Assembly (NCBI GenBank): GCA_963971535.1
Contig: OZ020590.1
Location: forward strand, 151,456,034-151,520,033
Direction: 5' to 3'
DNA length: 64,000 nucleotides
From: Notolepis coatsorum
Taxonomy: Eukaryota; Chordata; Actinopteri; Aulopiformes; Paralepididae
Below the pieces are notes generated by a model that saw only the letters and a program-made list of their open reading frames with translations, was not told the DNA's origin and searched no databases. Position 1 is the stretch's first letter; the number at the start of each line of letters is the position of its first letter. The translations under genes and the position numbers were made by a program. Shown here piece by piece: positions 6,415 to 18,860 of this stretch.

Positions 6415-6418
6415 TATA

Positions 6419-8241
6419 TGTAGCAGTCTGGAAAATATGGTATATTATTCAGAACTGCTGACTGTGTTTATATCCCTTTTTGTACACAAAGACATTCTAA
6501 CTAGTGTCATTGATTCACACGAACAATGACACAAACATCCCCGTCCAAAGAGCATGTGAATACAGATCATAAATGACAGTATTGATTCATATTTTACAGT
6601 GCATCTCCCCGTGTGACTGGCAGGCGGGACCAGCAGGGGGCAGTAGCAGGCAGAGAGTGGCGGAGAGAGCTGAGAGATGATAAAGGGAGGAGTGCAGCGG
6701 AAGTCGTTCTCTTCGGCAGTGAACTTGACAACGAGAAGTCACGTCTAACGGGGGGGCTCTGGATAGCCCCGTTGCTGACTTTATGCCGGAGTGCCCCGTG
6801 GAACAGTGACGGGTGATAGGAAGTACTGGCTAGTGGATACGATATCCTAGCAGTACCAGTGTTATGATATTATGAACATTAAGTGCAGAGTCAGGCACTA
6901 AGAGTCGAGTTATACCTAGTTACAGTGAGCGGTATAGGTAGCGTGCGGCTAAGGATCACAGTAGCATTGCTCGTGTTATACCTAGTTACAGTGACGGTAT
7001 AGTCTGCGTGCCAGAGACGTACGGGACATCCAAGCAGTCTGCCCGGGCGTCAACAGCTGTCTGCACCGGAGAGCAGCAGCACACCTGCTCCAGGCTGCCT
7101 GCAGGACACGGGGAGTTCTTTACCACCAGCAGAGTTCGCCCAGCACCAGCTCAGCCAGCACTGCCTCTCTGCTATAGCTCCGCCTGCTAGCACCTGCGGC
7201 GCGAGTGTTCGACACCATCTTGCCACCAGGACGGTGGTGGAGCGGCGCGGCCGCCATTTTGGTAGAGTAAACATTAGGGCTTCGGCGCCCAGGATCTATT
7301 GCACCTTACACAGTGTGGAGCGGCCTGCGGGTGAAGTTAACGTTGCTAACTGCAGACCCCAAACATTACATTACATGCCGGCATTAGCATAGGGCTTTTG
7401 TTTTGGTAATTGTGGGCCCACACTTTGGTTTTATTTCCTTTTCTTTGAGCGTGATACAATGTGTGTGTATTAATATTTTCCCATTCAATTAACCCTTCCC
7501 TGGGGGGGGAAGTTACAGACCTGGTGCATTATAATTAAAGCCTTTTGAGGTATTATTCTGGCCGTATAATTAAAGCCTGTTGAGGTATTATACAGGGTGA
7601 AGACCCAGACGTGGGTGATGAGTCAAACACAGTGAAGTATATTATCCCGGATAGTAACCCAGAGGTGGGTGCATAATATACGTGTTTATGAGGTATTGAG
7701 TTGAACAGCAGGGGCTATAGTAGGACTTCAGCCCAATTGGCCAGTAGTATTAAATAATTGTAACTGAACAGTACAATTAACATAAAGACTTGAATGGGGT
7801 TCTGTGTGCGTGTCCATTCCTGTGCCCTGCATTAACTCTTTTGGTGTGGGTAACGTATATATATGGTTAACCCCTTCCTACCCAACTCTCCCCTTTTCAG
7901 TGGAAGGTTTCTAGGGTCATTGAGGGAGGGTACTGCTTGCGGGGGGAACTCAGAGTATTTGATTACAATTCAGTCACGAGGTGTGGGAGGGTCTAAGGAG
8001 CGACTGGGAGGAGTGGGAGCGTGTTGGGGAGTACTGCTGACCGCCCTGCGACAGGGAAGGAAGACCAGAGTACCAGACCAGGTTGGTAAATCCCGGGCCC
8101 CATCCACTCACACTACCAGCCTCCAGTCGACGCCCCAGGCCCAAAGACGAGGGTGCAGCCAGACAGAGTTCTGCTGTGTCCAGCTACCTCCTGACTGCCA
8201 GCAACCGTTCCCACGAAGCAGGGATAATCCACCCTGCTACA
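6419..8241 (+). repeat. 5' LTR
   Basis: TG...CA ended. It contains a duplicated motif (TTATACCTAGTTACAGTGA near 6913 and 6976), a second duplicated motif (ATTAAAGCC...GAGGTATTAT near 7535 and 7567), and a TATATATA box near 7856. The small frames inside it show no recognisable protein. Confidence 0.95.
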
Positions 8242-8262
8242 TTTGGCGTCACGAACAGGATC
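8242..8262 (+). promoter_or_regulatory. Primer-binding site
   Basis: TTTGGCGTCACGAACAGGAT directly follows the 5' LTR end. The TGGCG start is as expected for pairing with a tRNA 3' end. I do not assign the tRNA. Confidence 0.8.
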
Positions 8263-8309
8263 AACATCCTAACTTACTCCCTTGACCGAGACCCGTAGAG
8301 AGACCCACG

Positions 8310-10553
8310 ATGTCAAAGAAGGAGACCCCCGCCGCGCAAGAGATGGCGGCGAAGTTTGAGCAACTGCAGGAGCAGTGTCAGACTCAGGCAGCACTGCTAA
8401 AGCAGCAAGCCGCAGCGATGAAGGAGTTGACTGACCAGGCCCTCCGCACTCAGGCGGCCCTACAGGAGCTACGAGAGGGCCAGGCCGCCGCCACCTTGAT
8501 ACAGAAAGGGGAGGCCTACCACGCGCAGGAGAGGGAGGCGGAGTTAGAGGACCTGCAGGCGGAGTGTCGGAGGCAGGCGGCACTACTGGCGCTGGACACC
8601 GAGGTGAAGAAAGAGGAGGCCGAACGCATGGAGGAACTGACCGCACAGGTGAAGGCCCTGACGAACAGAACCCACACACTCGCCGGTCTCCTGGACCGAC
8701 AGGCGCTGGTCCTGGAAAAGACCCAAGCCGCTCTCGACCGGGACGGCCGCGAACCCCGCACCGGCCCCTCTACCGTGTACGTCCAACGGGACCGAAAGTG
8801 CAGCGAGTTCGGAGGGGGAAAAGAGAGAGGAGGGCCGCTGGTGGAGGACTGGATCCAGGACATGAAAGCGCATTTCCGGAGCAGCAGAGTGCCCGGTGAC
8901 GAACAGGCAGAGTTCATACAACAGCATCTAAAAGGCGAGGCTAAACGGACGGTGCGCTTCGTGCTAGAAGGGACCGCCCCGGAGCCGGACGCCGTGTTCC
9001 GAGTGCTGCAGGAGACGTACGGAGATAAGACCTCGGTCAGTGCCCGCCTGAGAGAGTTCCTCGACTGCCGACAAAGAGAGGGCGAGACCGTGAGGGAGTT
9101 TGCTTACGATCTACAAGAGCAGATGCGCCGCATACAGGGCCGAGAACCCCAACGAGTCGCGGATCCTGCCGCCCGGCTGCAGGAGCAGTTTGTGGTAGGC
9201 CTGAAGGATGGGATGCTGCGACGGGAAATGAAGAGGTCCGTAAAGGAGAACGGGGGGCGGACGTTTTTCGAATTGATGATGGCGGCGATAGACTGGTCCG
9301 AAGAGGAGATGGTCCTTCCTCCCACAGGGGGTGCCGGCAGGGGCATGATACGCGGCGTCACCGTGAAGAGATGCGAGCCACCTCTGGACATAGCCGCGCT
9401 ACAGGAGCGAGACACGACCCCGAGAGGCTTCGCCGGAAGCCGACAGAGGGGAGACGGGCCCTCTACCCCGCGCAGACTACCCCGCCGGAGCGAGGATGGG
9501 AGACTGATCTGCTACACCTGTCAACAGCCGGGCCATATTGGCCGCGAGTGCCCTCGCGCGAGGGGAGAACCACGCCCGACGGAAGCACCGGGCGGTGCGG
9601 TTTCTCTCCCACAAGTACAGGACGCCACCCACACAGCAGCAGGCGGGTCGTCCGACCTGGCGACCGCCAGACCATGGTCTGAGGGGGGAGGTGTGGTAGC
9701 GTGCCGTAGTATTTGTAGGATTCGATACCACTGCGGCCGCTCCGACGGAAGCGCTGGCGCCCGGCCGCGCAGCCCGATGCGGTCAGAACCGGAGGCTGTA
9801 CCCAAGAGACAGGACTATTACGGAGGCTTCCGACCAAGGAGTTTCCCCCGCCCCAGGCTGGTGCGAGACCGAGAGGAGAACAAGGGGAACAGGTCGGAAA
9901 GAGGTCAAGGGGGCGAGGCCGGCCAGGACCAGGGGCCTCGTCGGCGCCGCTACCGCCACAACTTCAACTACCGCCGCAGACGCTCGCCGGCCGGTGACAA
10001 GCCGGGCCCAGAGGGCGGCGATGGAAACGTCAAGAGGACGTCAGTGTTCACGGTTCATCCCGAAAGAGGGGGCCCCGAAAGGACCTTGAGGAGAGCGCGG
10101 AGCTCATCCGAAGCAGACGTGGGTGGTGCCTTCGTTTACCCTCGAAAACCGCACCCTAGGGCGTGTAACCCACCCAGGGTCCCGCGGGTCGTCGCTGAAG
10201 CAGCGCCGAACGAGGGAGGAGAGGTAGAGTTGGTCCCCTCAGGGGAGAGCGGCGAAGACGGCGGAGACCGGGGCGAGGAGGGCGCCGCGAGCGGCCCCTC
10301 AGAGGCCTCGGAGGGCAAAGCCGTGGCCGAGGACCTGCCAACCGAGACGGAGGAATCTGACATGGAAGTCAACAGCAAAGGTTATGTAAGGATCTCGGCG
10401 GAAGAAGTTCGGGCTCTCTTGCTTCGGGCTGCGGGGGGTCGAGCGGGCCCCATCCGTGCTCGCCGGAGCCCCGAGAAGCGGATCAATCCGTCGGAGCACC
10501 AGTGGTCGGCGACAGGACTACGTGCTCAAGAGTGTGTAAAACTGTTGGCATAA
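8310..10553 (+). CDS. Retrotransposon Gag with Y-box-protein-like C-terminal segment
   Basis: An intact 747-codon ORF starts 69 bp after the LTR. Residues ~5-150 are a Gln/Glu/Ala-rich predicted coiled coil. Residues ~165-345 resemble a Ty3/Gypsy or PNMA-type capsid (LVEDWIQDMKAHF, then a VFRVLQETYGDKTS-type motif). Residues 401-414 form a perfect CX2CX4HX4C zinc knuckle. Beyond it lies a segment not expected in Gag. Residues ~499-575 include RQDYYGGFRPR, an acidic Glu/Gly/Gln stretch, and YRHNFNYRRRR at 548-558, matching in order the C-terminal tail of YBX1-type Y-box proteins (RQNMYRGYRPR ... YRRNFNYRRRR, recalled from the family). The last ~170 residues are acidic and unrecognised. Gag should bind and package RNA; how the extra domain alters this is inference. 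Confidence 0.9.
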   Translation: MSKKETPAAQEMAAKFEQLQEQCQTQAALLKQQAAAMKELTDQALRTQAALQELREGQAAATLIQKGEAYHAQEREAELEDLQAECRRQAALLALDTEVKKEEAERMEELTAQVKALTNRTHTLAGLLDRQALVLEKTQAALDRDGREPRTGPSTVYVQRDRKCSEFGGGKERGGPLVEDWIQDMKAHFRSSRVPGDEQAEFIQQHLKGEAKRTVRFVLEGTAPEPDAVFRVLQETYGDKTSVSARLREFLDCRQREGETVREFAYDLQEQMRRIQGREPQRVADPAARLQEQFVVGLKDGMLRREMKRSVKENGGRTFFELMMAAIDWSEEEMVLPPTGGAGRGMIRGVTVKRCEPPLDIAALQERDTTPRGFAGSRQRGDGPSTPRRLPRRSEDGRLICYTCQQPGHIGRECPRARGEPRPTEAPGGAVSLPQVQDATHTAAGGSSDLATARPWSEGGGVVACRSICRIRYHCGRSDGSAGARPRSPMRSEPEAVPKRQDYYGGFRPRSFPRPRLVRDREENKGNRSERGQGGEAGQDQGPRRRRYRHNFNYRRRRSPAGDKPGPEGGDGNVKRTSVFTVHPERGGPERTLRRARSSSEADVGGAFVYPRKPHPRACNPPRVPRVVAEAAPNEGGEVELVPSGESGEDGGDRGEEGAASGPSEASEGKAVAEDLPTETEESDMEVNSKGYVRISAEEVRALLLRAAGGRAGPIRARRSPEKRINPSEHQWSATGLRAQECVKLLA

Positions 10554-10648
10554 TGTGTAATTGTCGACCGATGTGTGAAACTGTTGGTCTCAGGACCGTT
10601 GTCATACATGCGTGGTTTTGTTGTTAACTTGCAGAGGACTTAGCAAGT

Positions 10649-10664
10649 TCAAAGTGGGGGGAAA
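10649..10664 (+). promoter_or_regulatory. Polypurine tract
   Basis: A purine-rich run, AAAGTGGGGGGAAA, immediately precedes the 3' LTR. This is the position expected for plus-strand priming. Confidence 0.85.
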
Positions 10665-12488
10665 TGTAGCAGTCTGGAAAATATGGTATATTATTCAGAA
10701 CTGCTGACTGTGTTTATATCCCTTTTTGTACACAAAGACATTCTAACTAGTGTCATTGATTCACACGAACAATGACACAAACATCCCCGTCCAAAGAGCA
10801 TGTGAATACAGATCATAAATGACAGTATTGATTCATATTTTACAGTGCATCTCCCCGTGTGACTGGCAGGCGGGACCAGCAGGGGGCAGTAGCAGGCAGA
10901 GAGTGGCGGAGAGAGCTGAGAGATGATAAAGGGAGGAGTGCAGCGGAAGTCGTTCTCTTCGGCAGTGAACTTGACAACGAGAAGTCACGTCTAACGGGGG
11001 GGCTCTGGATAGCCCCGTTGCTGACTTTATGCCGGAGTGCCCCGTGGAACAGTGACGGGTGATAGGAAGTACTGGCTAGTGGATACGATATCCTAGCAGT
11101 ACCAGTGTTATGATATTATGAACATTAAGTGCAGAGTCAGGCACTAAGAGTCGAGTTATACCTAGTTACAGTGAGCGGTATAGGTAGCGTGCGGCTAAGG
11201 ATCACAGTAGCATTGCTCGTGTTATACCTAGTTACAGTGACGGTATAGTCTGCGTGCCAGAGACGTACGGGACATCCAAGCAGTCTGCCCGGGCGTCAAC
11301 AGCTGTCTGCACCGGAGAGCAGCAGCACACCTGCTCCAGGCTGCCTGCAGGACACGGGGAGTTCTTTACCACCAGCAGAGTTCGCCCAGCACCAGCTCAG
11401 CCAGCACTGCCTCTCTGCTATAGCTCCGCCTGCTAGCACCTGCGGCGCGAGTGTTCGACGCCATCTTGCCACCAGGACGGTGGTGGAGCGGCGCGGCCGC
11501 CATTTTGGTAGAGTAAACATTAGGGCTTCGGCGCCCAGGATCTATTGCACCTTACACAGTGTGGAGCGGCCTGCGGGTGAAGTTAACGTTGCTAACTGCA
11601 GACCCCAAACATTACATTACATGCCGGCATTAGCATAGGGCTTTTGTTTTGGTAATTGTGGGCCCACACTTTGGTTTTATTTCCTTTTCTTTGAGCGTGA
11701 TACAATGTGTGTGTATTAATATTTTCCCATTCAATTAACCCTTCCCTGGGGGGGGGAAGTTACAGACCTGGTGCATTATAATTAAAGCCTTTTGAGGTAT
11801 TATTCTGGCCGTATAATTAAAGCCTGTTGAGGTATTATACAGGGTGAAGACCCAGACGTGGGTGATGAGTCAAACACAGTGAAGTATATTATCCCGGATA
11901 GTAACCCAGAGGTGGGTGCATAATATACGTGTTTATGAGGTATTGAGTTGAACAGCAGGGGCTATAGTAGGACTTCAGCCCAATTGGCCAGTAGTATTAA
12001 ATAATTGTAACTGAACAGTACAATTAACATAAAGACTTGAATGGGGTTCTGTGTGCGTGTCCATTCCTGTGCCCTGCATTAACTCTTTTGGTGTGGGTAA
12101 CGTATATATATGGTTAACCCCTTCCTACCCAACTCTCCCCTTTTCAGTGGAAGGTTTCTAGGGTCATTGAGGGAGGGTACTGCTTGCGGGGGGAACTCAG
12201 AGTATTTGATTACAATTCAGTCACGAGGTGTGGGAGGGTCTAAGGAGCGACTGGGAGGAGTGGGAGCGTGTTGGGGAGTACTGCTGACCGCCCTGCGACA
12301 GGGAAGGAAGACCAGAGTACCAGACCAGGTTGGTAAATCCCGGGCCCCATCCACTCACACTACCAGCCTCCAGTCGACGCCCCAGGCCCAAAGACGAGGG
12401 TGCAGCCAGACAGAGTTCTGCTGTGTCCAGCTACCTCCTGACTGCCAGCAACCGTTCCCACGAAGCAGGGATAATCCACCCTGCTACA
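10665..12488 (+). repeat. 3' LTR
   Basis: A direct copy of 6419-8241 that differs by one extra G in a G-run and one substitution in the parts I compared. Gag ends 111 bp upstream, leaving no room for pol. Confidence 0.95.
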
Positions 12489-12670
12489 TATATCTGTAGA
12501 TACTAGCCTCTATCTATCTATACATTTTGTACATGTCCCTTACCTACTCTTACTAGTTACGCTGCTGGCCAGTATGACTTACTACCATAGTGTCTTTATA
12601 CCTGTATCACTGTACATGTTAATACTATATCTATATCTGTACATATCCCTTACCTACTCTTACTAGTTAC

Positions 12671-15719: not shown

Positions 15720-17677
15720 TCACAGTGTGCAACTATAGGGCTTTTCCCCCGTATGGCTTCTCGTGTGTCTATTCAGGTCTCCCTGTCTAGTATATCTTTT
15801 AGGACACAGTGTGCAACTATAGGGCTTTTCCCCAGTATGGCTTCTCATGTGACTATTCAGGTGTCCCTGTGTAATATATTTTTTAGGACACAGTGTGCAA
15901 CTATAGGGCTTTTCCCCAGTATGGCTTCTCATGTGAATATTCAGGTCTCCCCGTTTAATATATCTTTTAGGACACAGTGTGCAACTATAGGGCTTTTCCC
16001 CAGTATGGCTTCTCATGTGAATATTCAGCTCTCCCCGTGTAATATATTTTTTAGGACACAGGGTGCAACTATAGGGCTTTTCCCCAGGATGTCTTCTCAT
16101 GTGAATATTCAGGTCTCCCCGTTTAATATATCTTTTAGGACACAGTGTGCAACTATAGGGCTTTTCCCCAGTATGGCGTCTTATATGGTCTTTTAGGTGA
16201 GATTTTACACTAAATCTTTTAGGACACAGTGTGCAACTATAGGGCTCTTCCACAGTATGGCTTCTCATGTGTACTTTTAGGTTAGATTTTACACTAAATC
16301 TTTTAGGACACAGGGTGCAACTATAGGGCTTGTCCCCAGTGTGGCTTCTCATATGTGCTTCCAAGAGTGTAATGGTAGTACATTTCTTGCCACAAACAGT
16401 ACATGTCATGTGAGTTTGAAAGTGAAGTTTTAAGCTCTCTGTGGGTTCTAAATGTTTTCCACACAAACCACAGTCAATAAGATGGACTTCAAGATGGGGC
16501 ATTAAAGCTTTCCTATTAGGAAAACATTTCCCACACACTTTACAGCTCCAGGTCTCACATGGTATTTGGTTTGATAATTTCACCTCATGGGATGAAACCA
16601 CAGAGCTCTTCAACTGGTTGCTGTTAGACAAACTCTGTCCTTTGTTTTTCTGTGTCTTCTTTGATGTCAGTGAGTTTAAACCAGGATGAGGTTCACTAGT
16701 CTCCAGCCAATCATCACTGTCATCAGTATCAGTTCCAGAACAGTCTGAAGAGAGGAGCTGGCCATCTGTAGTTGGTTCTAAATCACCAGCTGGATCTAAG
16801 TTACTGACTGGTTCTGATAATCCACAGTCCTCTCCATCAGGTTCTGTTTTCATCTGTTCTGTTGAGGTGCTGGCTAGAGGCTCTGTCTCTCCGTTTTCCT
16901 CAGTCTGGGTTTGGTTAAACCATGAGGACTGAGGTTTCTCTTCATCATCTTCACTCTTCACAGGGACAGGGTTGAAGGTGAACTTGATATCAGCCTCCTC
17001 CAGACCTTGAAGCTGCTCTCCCTCCTGACTGGTCCAGAGTTCCTCCTGTTCCTCTTTAATCTGTAGGAGCTCTGGGTCCTGGGTTTGGTTAAACCATGAG
17101 GACTGAGGTTTCTCTTCATCATCTTCACTCTTCACAGGGACAGGGTTGAAAGTGAACTTGATATCAGCCTCCTCCAGACCTTGAAGCTGCTCTCCCTCCT
17201 GACTGGTCCAGAGTTCCTCCTGTTCCTCTTTAATCTGTAGGAGCTCTGGGTCCTGGGTTTGGTTAAACCATGAGGACTGAGGTTTCTCTTCATCATGTTC
17301 ACTCTTCACAGGGACAGGGTTGAAAGTGAACTTGATATCAGCCTCCTCCAGACCTTGAAGCTGCTCTCCCTCCGGACCGGTCCAGAGTTCCTCCTGTTCC
17401 TCTTTAATCTGTAGGAGCTCTGGGTCCTGGGTTTGGTTAAACCATGAGGACTGATGTTTCTCTTCATCATGTTCACTCTTCACAGGGACAGGGTTGAATG
17501 TGAACTTGATGATATCAGCCTCCTCCAGACCTTGAAGCTGCTCTCCCTCCGGACAGGTCCAGAGTTCCTCCTGTTCCTCTTTCATCTGTAGGAGCTCTGG
17601 CTGCTCCCTCAGACTGGGGCTCCTCTCCTGCTGTTCAGGGGGAACCTCCTCTTCACAGACAGAGAGCTGTGGGGGGT
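15720..17677 (-). CDS. C2H2 zinc finger protein, unit 1 (3' coding exon)
   Basis: A predicted nuclear DNA-binding transcription factor, seen as one large terminal exon. The upper end is set at 17677, where TTCTGCCTCCCTCCAG gives a polypyrimidine tract and AG acceptor; the upstream Met of the open frame is therefore intronic and the true start lies in an unseen exon. The exon opens with [16 protein letters not shown], then four 58-aa acidic modules (EEQEELWT...[11 protein letters not shown]...PVPVKSE), a Ser/Thr/Asp-rich linker, and ten full C2H2 fingers. Fingers 1-3 are divergent; 4-10 are YSCTLCPK type with TGEKP linkers. It stops in finger 11 after YSCTL because of a 2-bp deletion. The acidic module and finger arrays are internally tandem, which favours length change. 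Confidence 0.88.
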
Positions 17678-17756
17678 CTGGAGGGAGGCAGAATAATAAC
17701 ATGAATAGTTGTAATTGCTGTCACCATTGGAAAGCCACCCATTTTAAGAATTCACA

Positions 17757-18601
17757 CATGTTCTTCCTGTGCCCCAGGACAGTTCAGTCAGTATGTTCTT
17801 CCTGTGCCCCAGGACAGTTCAGTCAGTATGTTCTTCCTGTGCTCCAGGACAGTTCAGTCAGTATGTTCTTCCTGTGCCCCAGGACAGTTCATTCAGTATG
17901 TTCTTCCTGAGGACAGTTCAGTCAGTATGTTCTTCCTGTGCCCCAGGACAGTTCAGTCAGTATGTTCTTCCTGTGCCCCAGGACAGTTCAGTCAGTATGT
18001 TCTTCCTGAGGACAGTTCAGTCAGTATGTTCTTCCTGTGTCTCAGGACAGTTCAGTCAGTATGTTCTTCCTCAGTATGTACTGACATACTGACTGAACTG
18101 TCCTGGAGCACAGGAAGAACATACTGACTGAACTGTCCTGGAGCACAGGAAGAACATACTGACTGAACTGTCCTGGAGCACAGGAAGAACATACTGACTG
18201 AATGTCCTCAGGAAGAACATACTGACTGAACTGTCCTGGGGCACAGGAAGAACATAGTGAATGAACTGTCCTGGATCACAGGAAGAACATACTGACTGAA
18301 CTGTCCTGGAGCACAGGAAGAACATACTGACTGAACTGTCCTGGAGCACAGGAAGAACATACTGACTGAACTGTCCTGGAGCACAGGAAGAACATACTGA
18401 CTGAACTGTCCTCAGGAAGAACATACTGACTGAACTGTCCTGTAGCACAGGAAGAACATACTGACTGAACTGTCCTGTAGCACAGGAAGAACATACTGAC
18501 TGAACTGTCCTTGAGCACAGGAAGAACATACTGACTGAACTGTCCTGGAGCACAGGAAGAACATACTGACTGAACTGTCCTGGAGCACAGGAAGAACATA
18601 G
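17757..18601. repeat. Palindromic 35-bp minisatellite, unit 1
   Basis: Units of CAGTCAGTATGTTCTTCCTG plus TGCCCCAGGACAGTT run in plus orientation to about 18070. Then, across CAGTATGTACTGACATACTG, the same units continue in inverted orientation to 18601. Some units are 29 bp, lacking TGCCCC. Arms are about 315 and 515 bp. Open frames through it exist only because the unit lacks stops. It lies in the presumed intron upstream of the zinc finger exon. Confidence 0.95.
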
Positions 18602-18860
18602 ATGGTGAAAAAACGAGGTAGTTAACTATGTCGGCCCATGATTAAAATGACATAAATGATGCAACATACAGATATATATCATGACATAAATGACATACAG
18701 GTATACAGTACTGGTACATTTGTGACATACAAGATATGCAAATATACAGTAGTTAAACAGAGATCTTAACAGAAAATATATACATACGAGGGGGAGGAAA
18801 CTATACATTAGGAGGGAGTGGGTGGGTGGGTGGGAGGGGACATGTGTATTGTGAATTGTG
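18602..18860 (-). mobile_element. Diverged LINE-A 3' UTR fragment
   Basis: On the minus strand it resembles the LINE-A 3' UTR: a CCCACCCACCCACTCCC tract and TATGTCATAAATGT-like motifs. It is present in the same place in all three units, so it predates the duplication. Confidence 0.6.

What the first reader, a model, noticed from the sequence alone, without database searches (positions are those of the whole stretch)
9804..10034. Y-box protein C-terminal domain captured inside a retrotransposon Gag
Gag residues ~499-575 resemble the C-terminal tail of YBX1-type proteins in order: RQDYYGGFRPR versus RQNMYRGYRPR; a Glu/Gly/Gln-rich acidic stretch; then YRHNFNYRRRR versus YRRNFNYRRRR (10 of 11). 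Y-box tails bind RNA and drive RNP assembly, so an LTR element may have acquired a host RNA-packaging module next to its zinc knuckle. The segment has no introns, as expected for capture from mRNA.
Basis: partly seen in the sequence, partly recalled or inferred. Interest (0 to 1): 0.9.

Follow-up and report, generated by a model that had tools for sequence, protein, structure and literature searches.

The report
Y-box gene captured by retrotransposon Gag
A recently active jumping gene in a fish genome carries, inside its own particle-forming protein, the RNA-packing tail of the fish's own Y-box protein, which its ancestors acquired by copying the fish's messenger RNA.

Summary
Confirmed and extended. 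The window element is a young LTR retrotransposon (LTRs 1824/1825 identical) whose single 747-aa ORF is a PNMA/Ty3-type Gag with one CCHC knuckle and no pol. Residues 497-575 (9798-10034) are the C-terminal tail of host ybx1: score 317 against at most 95 in 10,000 shuffles. An intron-bearing ybx1 gene lies on C44 of the same genome. Elements carry its exons seamlessly joined, so spliced mRNA was copied. Relatives in this genome (L051-L054, L089) carry most of the ybx1 cDNA, including the cold-shock domain, where the integrase core should be. The window subfamily lost the cold-shock domain and kept the tail. Purifying selection acted after capture: cold-shock domain plus tail, element against element, omega 0.23-0.32 in 8 of 10 pairs. 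A second, unrelated retroelement here also carries ybx1. Retroelement-like proteins with Y-box domains are listed for tick, frog and other animals, mostly unverified gene models. Most likely mechanism: an added RNA-binding, condensing nucleocapsid segment. The origin is shown; the function is inferred.

The parts
6418..8242 (+). 5' LTR
   Evidence: aligned to 3' LTR, 1824 of 1825 identical, one gap column; repeat families D5, D6
6415..6418 (.). probable target-site duplication TATA, 5' copy (3' copy 12489-12492), with LTR ends set at TG...CA
   Evidence: flanks printed; 4 bp only, so weak on its own
8244..8261 (+). probable primer-binding site directly after the 5' LTR (starts TGG)
   Evidence: sequence after LTR end; tRNA not identified
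8310..10553 (+). Gag ORF, 747 aa, the only ORF between the LTRs with recognised domains
8841..9278 (+). PNMA/Ty3-like capsid region (residues 178-323)
   Evidence: Pfam PNMA E 3.1e-5, 23.9 bits, just under the 25-bit cut-off; P0001 residues 1-335 match window 8628-9587 at 39%
9510..9554 (+). CCHC zinc knuckle (residues 401-415)
   Evidence: Pfam zf-CCHC 27.3 bits, over cut-off
9734..9795 (+). probable remnant of pol (RNase H end) left between CCHC and the Y-box tail
   Evidence: 75% over 63 bases to L053 in that part, E 1.6e-4; weak
9798..10034 (+). ybx1-derived C-terminal tail (residues 497-575); host exon 6/7 junction falls at 9838/9839 by my count; 3' capture junction at 10034
   Evidence: host exon alignment; intermediates L051, L089, L052-L054
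10035..10371 (+). remnant of the pol C-terminal end downstream of the captured cDNA
   Evidence: aligned to the same stretch of L051-L054 and L089, which itself matches P0001 from residue 996 or 1008 in L051, L052, L053 and L089 and only 1104-1139 in L054; the window stretch itself gave no P0001 match at E up to 1
10650..10663 (+). probable polypurine tract before the 3' LTR
   Evidence: sequence printed
10664..12489 (+). 3' LTR

Best explanation
Shown: an LTR retrotransposon with a PNMA/Ty3-type Gag carries sequence copied from spliced host ybx1 mRNA. The cDNA sits in frame between Gag and the integrase C-terminus, where the integrase core should be. Descendants multiplied, and the window subfamily lacks the cold-shock domain but keeps the arginine-rich tail behind its CCHC knuckle. 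Inferred: copying occurred by template switching inside particles that had co-packaged ybx1 mRNA; a Gag-Pol relative supplies enzymes in trans; and the tail acts as a second nucleocapsid segment that binds RNA by charge and promotes multimerisation, helping Gag to gather and condense element RNA. Confidence is about 0.98 for the ybx1 origin, 0.95 for spliced mRNA as source and 0.6 for the nucleocapsid role.
For: Tail alignment and shuffles. Host ybx1 exon 1 ends at a GT donor, exons 5 and 6 have AG/GT borders and the last exon follows AG, while elements carry these exons joined without intron. Five class-B copies read (L051, L052, L053, L054, L089) show ybx1 placed between P0001-equivalent residues about 600-624 and 996-1008; L054's downstream side matched only 1104-1139. 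L089 is one open frame of at least 783 aa with CCHC, cold-shock domain and tail, and a weak PNMA match (15.3 bits, cut-off 25). Element against element over CSD plus tail: omega 0.23-0.32 in 8 of 10 pairs, Fisher p 0.0019 to 2.6e-6 in those eight. Tail alone: L089-L054 0.22, L053-L054 0.19, L054-window 0.26. LTRs 99.95% identical; 22 of 24 loci whose tail is at least 95% like the window's have a frame of 733 aa or more through it. The window tail segment has net charge +13 with basic, acidic, basic order. Published: CTD basic clusters are linked to mRNA packaging in vitro and the CTD drives YB-1 oligomerisation (passages of PMC6451097 and PMC7226217); MMTV Gag assembles with YB-1 (passages of PMC4486188).
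Against: No RNA-binding, packaging or expression data. PMC7226217 passages say isolated CTD binds RNA probably non-cooperatively and cannot package mRNA into stable mRNPs, which weakens a stand-alone packaging role. The 808-aa subfamily has lost the first basic cluster and the RQNYYRGFRPR motif (L088), so not all of the tail is required. L052 lacks a recognisable capsid and CCHC (only the CSD was found). Omega is 0.59-0.75 in other tail comparisons (L026-window, L028-window, L051-L089, L026-L088, L028-L088, window-L088) and 0.61 with p 0.32 for L052-L053, so selection on the tail after loss of the CSD is only suggested. Class A copies average 0.69 over the CSD. NG86 ignores transition bias and so overstates purifying selection somewhat; no comparison with the capsid region was made.
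Confidence: 0.7

Rival explanations
1. Passenger: the captured cDNA is filler that keeps frame or length; the non-autonomous element spreads because it kept LTRs, packaging signals and a working capsid, not because of the Y-box part.
For: Capture at the cost of internal coding domains is usual for retroelements (PMC4299795 passages). Subfamilies differ in how much of the insert they keep: most of the cDNA (L051, L089), tail only (window), half tail (L088). Class A omega 0.69 and several tail-only comparisons at 0.59-0.75.
Against: Omega 0.23-0.32 with Fisher p 0.0019 or less in 8 of 10 class-B pairs. The basic cluster RRRRYRRNFNYRRRR is intact or one residue off in the window, L025-L030, L052-L054, L088 and L089; within the window subfamily L014, L015 and L021-L024 are two or three residues off. 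Retroelement-like proteins with Y-box domains are listed in other animals, which filler would not predict.
Confidence: 0.25
2. Targeting: the tail tethers Gag to host YB-1 ribonucleoprotein granules or to ybx-bound RNA, so the benefit is localisation or protection of Gag/RNA rather than direct condensation.
For: MMTV Gag co-localises with YB-1, whose knockdown lowers particle production (PMC4486188 passages). The CTD multimerises YB proteins (PMC7226217 passages).
Against: Nothing here separates this from direct RNA binding; no localisation data.
Confidence: 0.3
3. Composition chance or an ancient Arg-rich nucleocapsid shared by all related Gags.
For: The tail is low in complexity; PDB and Pfam searches were silent.
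Against: 0 of 10,000 shuffles; match to the host exon at DNA level over 189 positions; intermediates with the whole CSD; the three relatives P0001-P0003 lack it.
Confidence: 0.01
4. Ordinary LINE-made processed ybx1 pseudogenes nested by chance in LTR elements, later carried along as DNA.
For: The result is also intronless cDNA. Some ybx1-like copies (C8:2015k, C8:1995k, C6:121125k, C43:82091k) match the 5'UTR probe only from position 53, 77 or 117 and have a tail match over its whole length; they were not fetched and may be such pseudogenes.
Against: Placement at the same two pol positions in the class-B copies; the captured part ends before the ybx1 stop codon in the copies aligned to host DNA (L051, L052, window).
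Confidence: 0.04

Closest known systems
Crocodilian ERVs with captured KIT-ligand and nectin3 mRNA (PMC4299795; passages seen)
   Same: host mRNA captured in an LTR retroelement, several copies, ORF kept, purifying selection reported
   Different: those captured proteins are a ligand and an adhesion protein (nectin3 at the expense of env); here an RNA-packaging protein is fused in frame to Gag, stands where the integrase core should be, and is trimmed to its tail in the window subfamily
Maize Bs1 (review PMC13317346; passages seen) and acutely transforming retroviruses with gag-onc fusions (recalled)
   Same: transduced host sequence within a defective LTR element
   Different: here the cargo shows purifying selection between copies and is itself an RNA-binding protein
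TR-GAG / Gag-only non-autonomous LTR elements of plants (search listing only; definition recalled)
   Same: LTRs plus gag, no pol
   Different: animal Ty3/PNMA-type Gag with a host-derived domain
YB-1 co-option by MMTV Gag (PMC4486188 passages; Bann 2014 seen only as cited there)
   Same: Gag working together with Y-box protein in assembly
   Different: there in trans with the host protein; here covalently built into Gag
YBX1 (Y-box binding protein 1)
   Same: tail gaplessly aligned over 78 aa; full CSD in related copies
   Different: window copy lacks the N-terminal domain and CSD; part of the CTD is replaced by RE/RD pentapeptide repeats in class-B copies L052-L054 and L089

Membership tests
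Ty3/gypsy-type LTR retrotransposon with PNMA-like Gag | paired LTRs, target-site duplication, PBS, PPT | tested here: met
   TSD only 4 bp, PBS tRNA not identified, PPT by eye
Ty3/gypsy-type LTR retrotransposon with PNMA-like Gag | Gag capsid homology and CCHC | tested here: met
   (zf-CCHC over cut-off; PNMA 23.9 bits, just under 25)
Ty3/gypsy-type LTR retrotransposon with PNMA-like Gag | own protease, RT, integrase (autonomy) | tested here: not met
   no such domain in the Gag ORF; P0001 aligns to the internal region only over its residues 1-335 at E up to 1. It is therefore non-autonomous
YBX1-derived sequence | C-terminal tail homology beyond composition | tested here: met
YBX1-derived sequence | cold-shock domain | tested here: not met
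   absent from the window ORF; present in L089, L052, L053, L033. The window protein is a Gag with a YBX1 tail, not a Y-box protein
Host-gene transduction by a retroelement | spliced host exons joined, in frame, at fixed junctions, replacing element genes | tested here: met
   host exons 2-4 (most of the CSD) were not fetched, so those joins were not compared base by base
Nucleocapsid / RNA-packaging module | binds and packages element RNA | not testable with these tools
   charge pattern and selection only
TR-GAG non-autonomous class | LTRs + gag, mobilised in trans by a Gag-Pol relative | tested here: inconclusive
   related protease copies in open frames up to 1879 aa exist in the genome; mobilisation not tested

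The most novel reading that the evidence does not exclude
Y-box proteins are a recurrent capture target of animal LTR retroelements: fish, tick, frog, snail and coral lineages each fused a host Y-box domain to Gag or inserted it between Gag and integrase, because adding a ready-made RNA-packing domain is a repeatable route to a new nucleocapsid and because Y-box mRNPs tend to be co-packaged.
Probability: 0.4. Interest if true: 0.9.

Novelty: new variant of a known kind. Interest (0 to 1): 0.8.

Why it matters
A retroviral Gag (MMTV) is reported to work with YB-1 in trans. Here an element has built the protein into Gag, shows selection on it, and has left a natural deletion series (most of the cDNA, tail, half tail) within one genome. 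That makes the question 'what does a Y-box protein do for a retroelement' directly testable, and the cross-species hits, if they hold, suggest nucleocapsids can be renewed repeatedly from host RNA-binding proteins.

Tried and rejected
Chance or composition: rejected. Nucleocapsid common to all relatives: rejected by P0001-P0003. The window's middle segment (9570-9800) as a decayed cold-shock domain: not supported; apart from its own subfamily (L028, L088) the only match under E 0.01 among the eight loci compared was a weak pol-region match in L053. One or two captures in this fish: not resolved. Class A and L051 share differences from the present host gene in exons 5 and 6, but several look like later host insertions, by my own comparison with catfish YBX1 printed there. 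PDB search by sequence led nowhere. Structure prediction, fold search and RNA-family tools were not used: a disordered tail would give little. First tail script failed on an empty string and was redone; the tblastn failed and was redone. Other intron-bearing ybx paralogues were not searched for in this genome. Not in print: searches over the open PMC library; by title and start of abstract none of the papers listed describes a Y-box or cold-shock domain in a retrotransposon Gag. The lists were capped (15 of 84, 15 of 73, 10 of 132, 10 of 36), and subscription journals are not covered.

Full report
WHAT IS THERE. The window holds one complete LTR element at 6418-12489: two LTRs of about 1.83 kb, 1824 of 1825 aligned positions identical, a TATA duplication at the borders, a primer-site-like stretch and a purine tract. 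With mutation rates of 2e-9 to 1e-8 per site and year (recalled), one difference in 1825 puts the insertion at roughly 0.03-0.15 million years. Between the LTRs lies one ORF of 747 aa: a coiled N-terminus (my reading), PNMA/Ty3-like capsid, one CCHC knuckle, a Y-box tail and a pol C-terminal remnant. No protease, RT or integrase domain was found in it.

THE Y-BOX MATCH. Residues 497-575 hold a 78-residue gapless match to the tail of this genome's own ybx1 with score 317. None of 10,000 shuffles exceeded 95, and no other Gag window tested exceeded 53. The DNA match to the host last exon ends at 10034.

THE DONOR. An intron-bearing ybx1 gene is on contig C44, minus strand. Exon 1 holds the 5'UTR and MSSEAAETQ...KKVI and is followed by a GT donor; exon 5, exon 6 and the last exon have splice borders. 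In the elements these exons run on without intron.

THE INTERMEDIATES. A cold-shock-domain search of the genome gave 89 matches from 104 candidates, all scored. A tail search gave 150 scored of 430 candidates, so its counts are lower bounds. In class B, the window's kin, five copies were read. L089 is a single open frame with CCHC, pol remnant, ybx1 5'UTR remnant, cold-shock domain, RE/RD pentapeptide repeats and tail; its capsid gives only a weak PNMA match. L053 also keeps a protease-like stretch (under Pfam cut-offs; matches P0001 261-621). L052 has LTRs 1242 of 1258 identical but no recognised capsid or CCHC. L051 is closest to the host among those compared but is broken across two frames. 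Against the Gag-Pol relative P0001, the ybx1 cDNA sits between residues about 600-624 and 996-1008, where the integrase zinc and catalytic domains (666-884 in P0001) should be; in L054 the downstream match found was only P0001 1104-1139. The 5' edge of captured sequence is nearly the same in both classes: alignments start at position 137 (L036, L052, L053, each with a gap near the start) or 144 (L089) of the reverse strand of L086; L054 has a heavily gapped extension to 85, and L051 aligned only from 302. That would fit copying up to the mRNA 5' end, but the host start site was not mapped. L052, L053, L054 and L089 lack about 100 bases there, including the ybx1 start codon, which puts the 5'UTR remnant in frame. 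The window subfamily lacks the cold-shock domain; its tail is joined to what looks like an RNase H remnant. A further 808-aa subfamily keeps only the second half of the tail (L088).

A SECOND ELEMENT. Class A is a different retroelement: its 5' flank is unlike class B and it has an integrase C-terminal (Tf2-1-like SH3) end. Its LTRs were not looked for. It carries the ybx1 5'UTR, N-terminus, cold-shock domain and, in longer copies, CTD up to RGFRPRG. Of the 18 class-A loci among L031-L050 (all but L040 and L041), 11 have a frame of 560-693 aa through the cold-shock domain. A 5'UTR probe gave 41 matches from 84 candidates, 40 of them scored, including the host exon. Whether A and B are one capture passed between elements or two captures could not be decided.

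SELECTION. Nei-Gojobori counts between class-B copies over cold-shock domain plus tail give omega 0.23-0.32 in 8 of 10 pairs, with 0.45 (L051-L089) and 0.61 (L052-L053) in the others. Fisher p is 0.0019 or less in the eight, 0.033 and 0.32 in the two. Pairs are not independent, the method ignores transition bias, and the capsid was not compared. For the tail alone against the window, L054 gives 0.26, L089 0.39, L051 0.41, L052 0.53, and the closest relatives L028 and L026 0.63 and 0.75 on few changes; comparisons with L088 give 0.59-0.68. So selection on the captured part is well supported for the period with the cold-shock domain, and only suggested after its loss. Class A averages 0.69 over 153 pairs.

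ACTIVITY AND PARTNERS. Of 24 loci with a tail at least 95% like the window's, 22 have a frame of 733 aa or more through the tail; L007 has a stop and L018 a shorter frame (loci are cut at 3.2 kb). A protease probe found 150 scored of 1739 candidates, with frames up to 1879 aa; by my own comparison of coordinates at least 20 of those 150 lie within about 3 kb of a cold-shock or tail hit. The rest include candidates for an enzyme donor, which was not tested further.

OTHER ANIMALS. A protein search with the cold-shock and tail part of L089 listed 51 proteins. Seven of the 51 carry retroelement domains by the precomputed listing: P0045 (Pseudophryne frog; PNMA), P0044 (unnamed source; CCHC), P0036 (Rhipicephalus; integrase zinc domain, gag match under cut-off), P0051 (Arvicanthis; Gag p24, half a cold-shock domain), P0053 (Stylophora; DUF1759 and DUF5641, which I recall as Pao-type; cold-shock match under cut-off), P0054 (Biomphalaria; CCHC, protease match under cut-off, cold-shock match 26.7 against 27) and P0015 (Scotinomys; RT, protease, RNase H). 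The remaining 33 I take, from the listing, as Y-box genes, bacterial-type proteins or unresolved (P0023, P0046 and P0049 among them). A second search listed 120 of 230 hits; ten were scanned and none showed a retroelement domain over cut-off. In a tree of 26 cold-shock domains, which held six of the other-animal proteins (P0023, P0036, P0044, P0045, P0046, P0049), the two tick copies nest with a tick host protein at 99/95; the fish copies form a group at 89/84, not starred; the other four are unresolved; two label changes are forced by well-supported branches. None of these was checked at DNA level, and the rodent ones in particular may be neighbours joined by annotation.

MECHANISM. Shown: origin from spliced ybx1 mRNA, in-frame fusion to Gag, loss of pol, many copies, purifying selection, a tail-only form. 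Inferred: capture by template switching on co-packaged mRNA, mobilisation in trans, and tail function. Published work describes four basic clusters in the YB-1 CTD linked to mRNA packaging in vitro (PMC6451097, passages) and CTD-driven oligomerisation, with the caution that isolated CTD does not make stable mRNPs (PMC7226217, passages). MMTV Gag assembles with YB-1, and YB-1 knockdown lowers particle production (PMC4486188, passages). A tail placed behind a CCHC knuckle on a multimerising capsid would supply basic and multimerising segments in cis. I put this at about 0.6, against tethering to host mRNPs and against passenger.

VERDICT. Observation confirmed; interpretation supported and enlarged. 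It is a new variant of a known kind, host-gene transduction by LTR elements, with unusual cargo and position.

Noticed in passing
L031-L039, L042-L050, L056-L085: A second, unrelated retroelement family carries ybx1 5'UTR + CDS, in longer copies to RGFRPRG, ahead of an integrase C-terminus; 11 of 18 loci among L031-L050 have a frame of 560-693 aa.
   Followed up: partly
P0036, P0046, P0044, P0045, P0051, P0053, P0054, P0015: Retroelement-like proteins with Y-box cold-shock domains in tick, frog, rodent, coral, snail and an unnamed source; possible recurrent capture, gene models not verified.
   Followed up: partly
L052, L053, L054, L089: Part of the ybx1 CTD is replaced by a 15-bp tandem repeat coding RREPD/KREPE-like pentapeptides, varying in number between copies.
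   Followed up: no
G000 C45:90415-90423k, C43:46974-46982k, C1:163222-163236k, C9:193-196k: Tandem head-to-tail arrays of Y-box tails at regular spacing (about 3.9, 2.5, 4.3 and 1.25 kb; in C9 within one 1487-aa frame).
   Followed up: no
G000 C8:2015k, C8:1995k, C6:121125k, C43:82091k: A further group of intronless ybx1-like copies with cold-shock domain and whole tail that match the 5'UTR probe only from position 53, 77 or 117; perhaps processed pseudogenes or a third capture.
   Followed up: no
window 15720-17702: 660-aa ORF on the minus strand with many C2H2 fingers and a four-fold 58-codon repeat in the N-terminal half.
   Followed up: no
window 17741-18670: 35-bp repeat arrays arranged as large inverted repeats, arms up to 251 nt and 96% complementary.
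   Followed up: no
host ybx1, L090: The present host gene has extra residues in exons 5 and 6 that L051 and most class-A copies lack; the captured copies may preserve an older ybx1 sequence.
   Followed up: no
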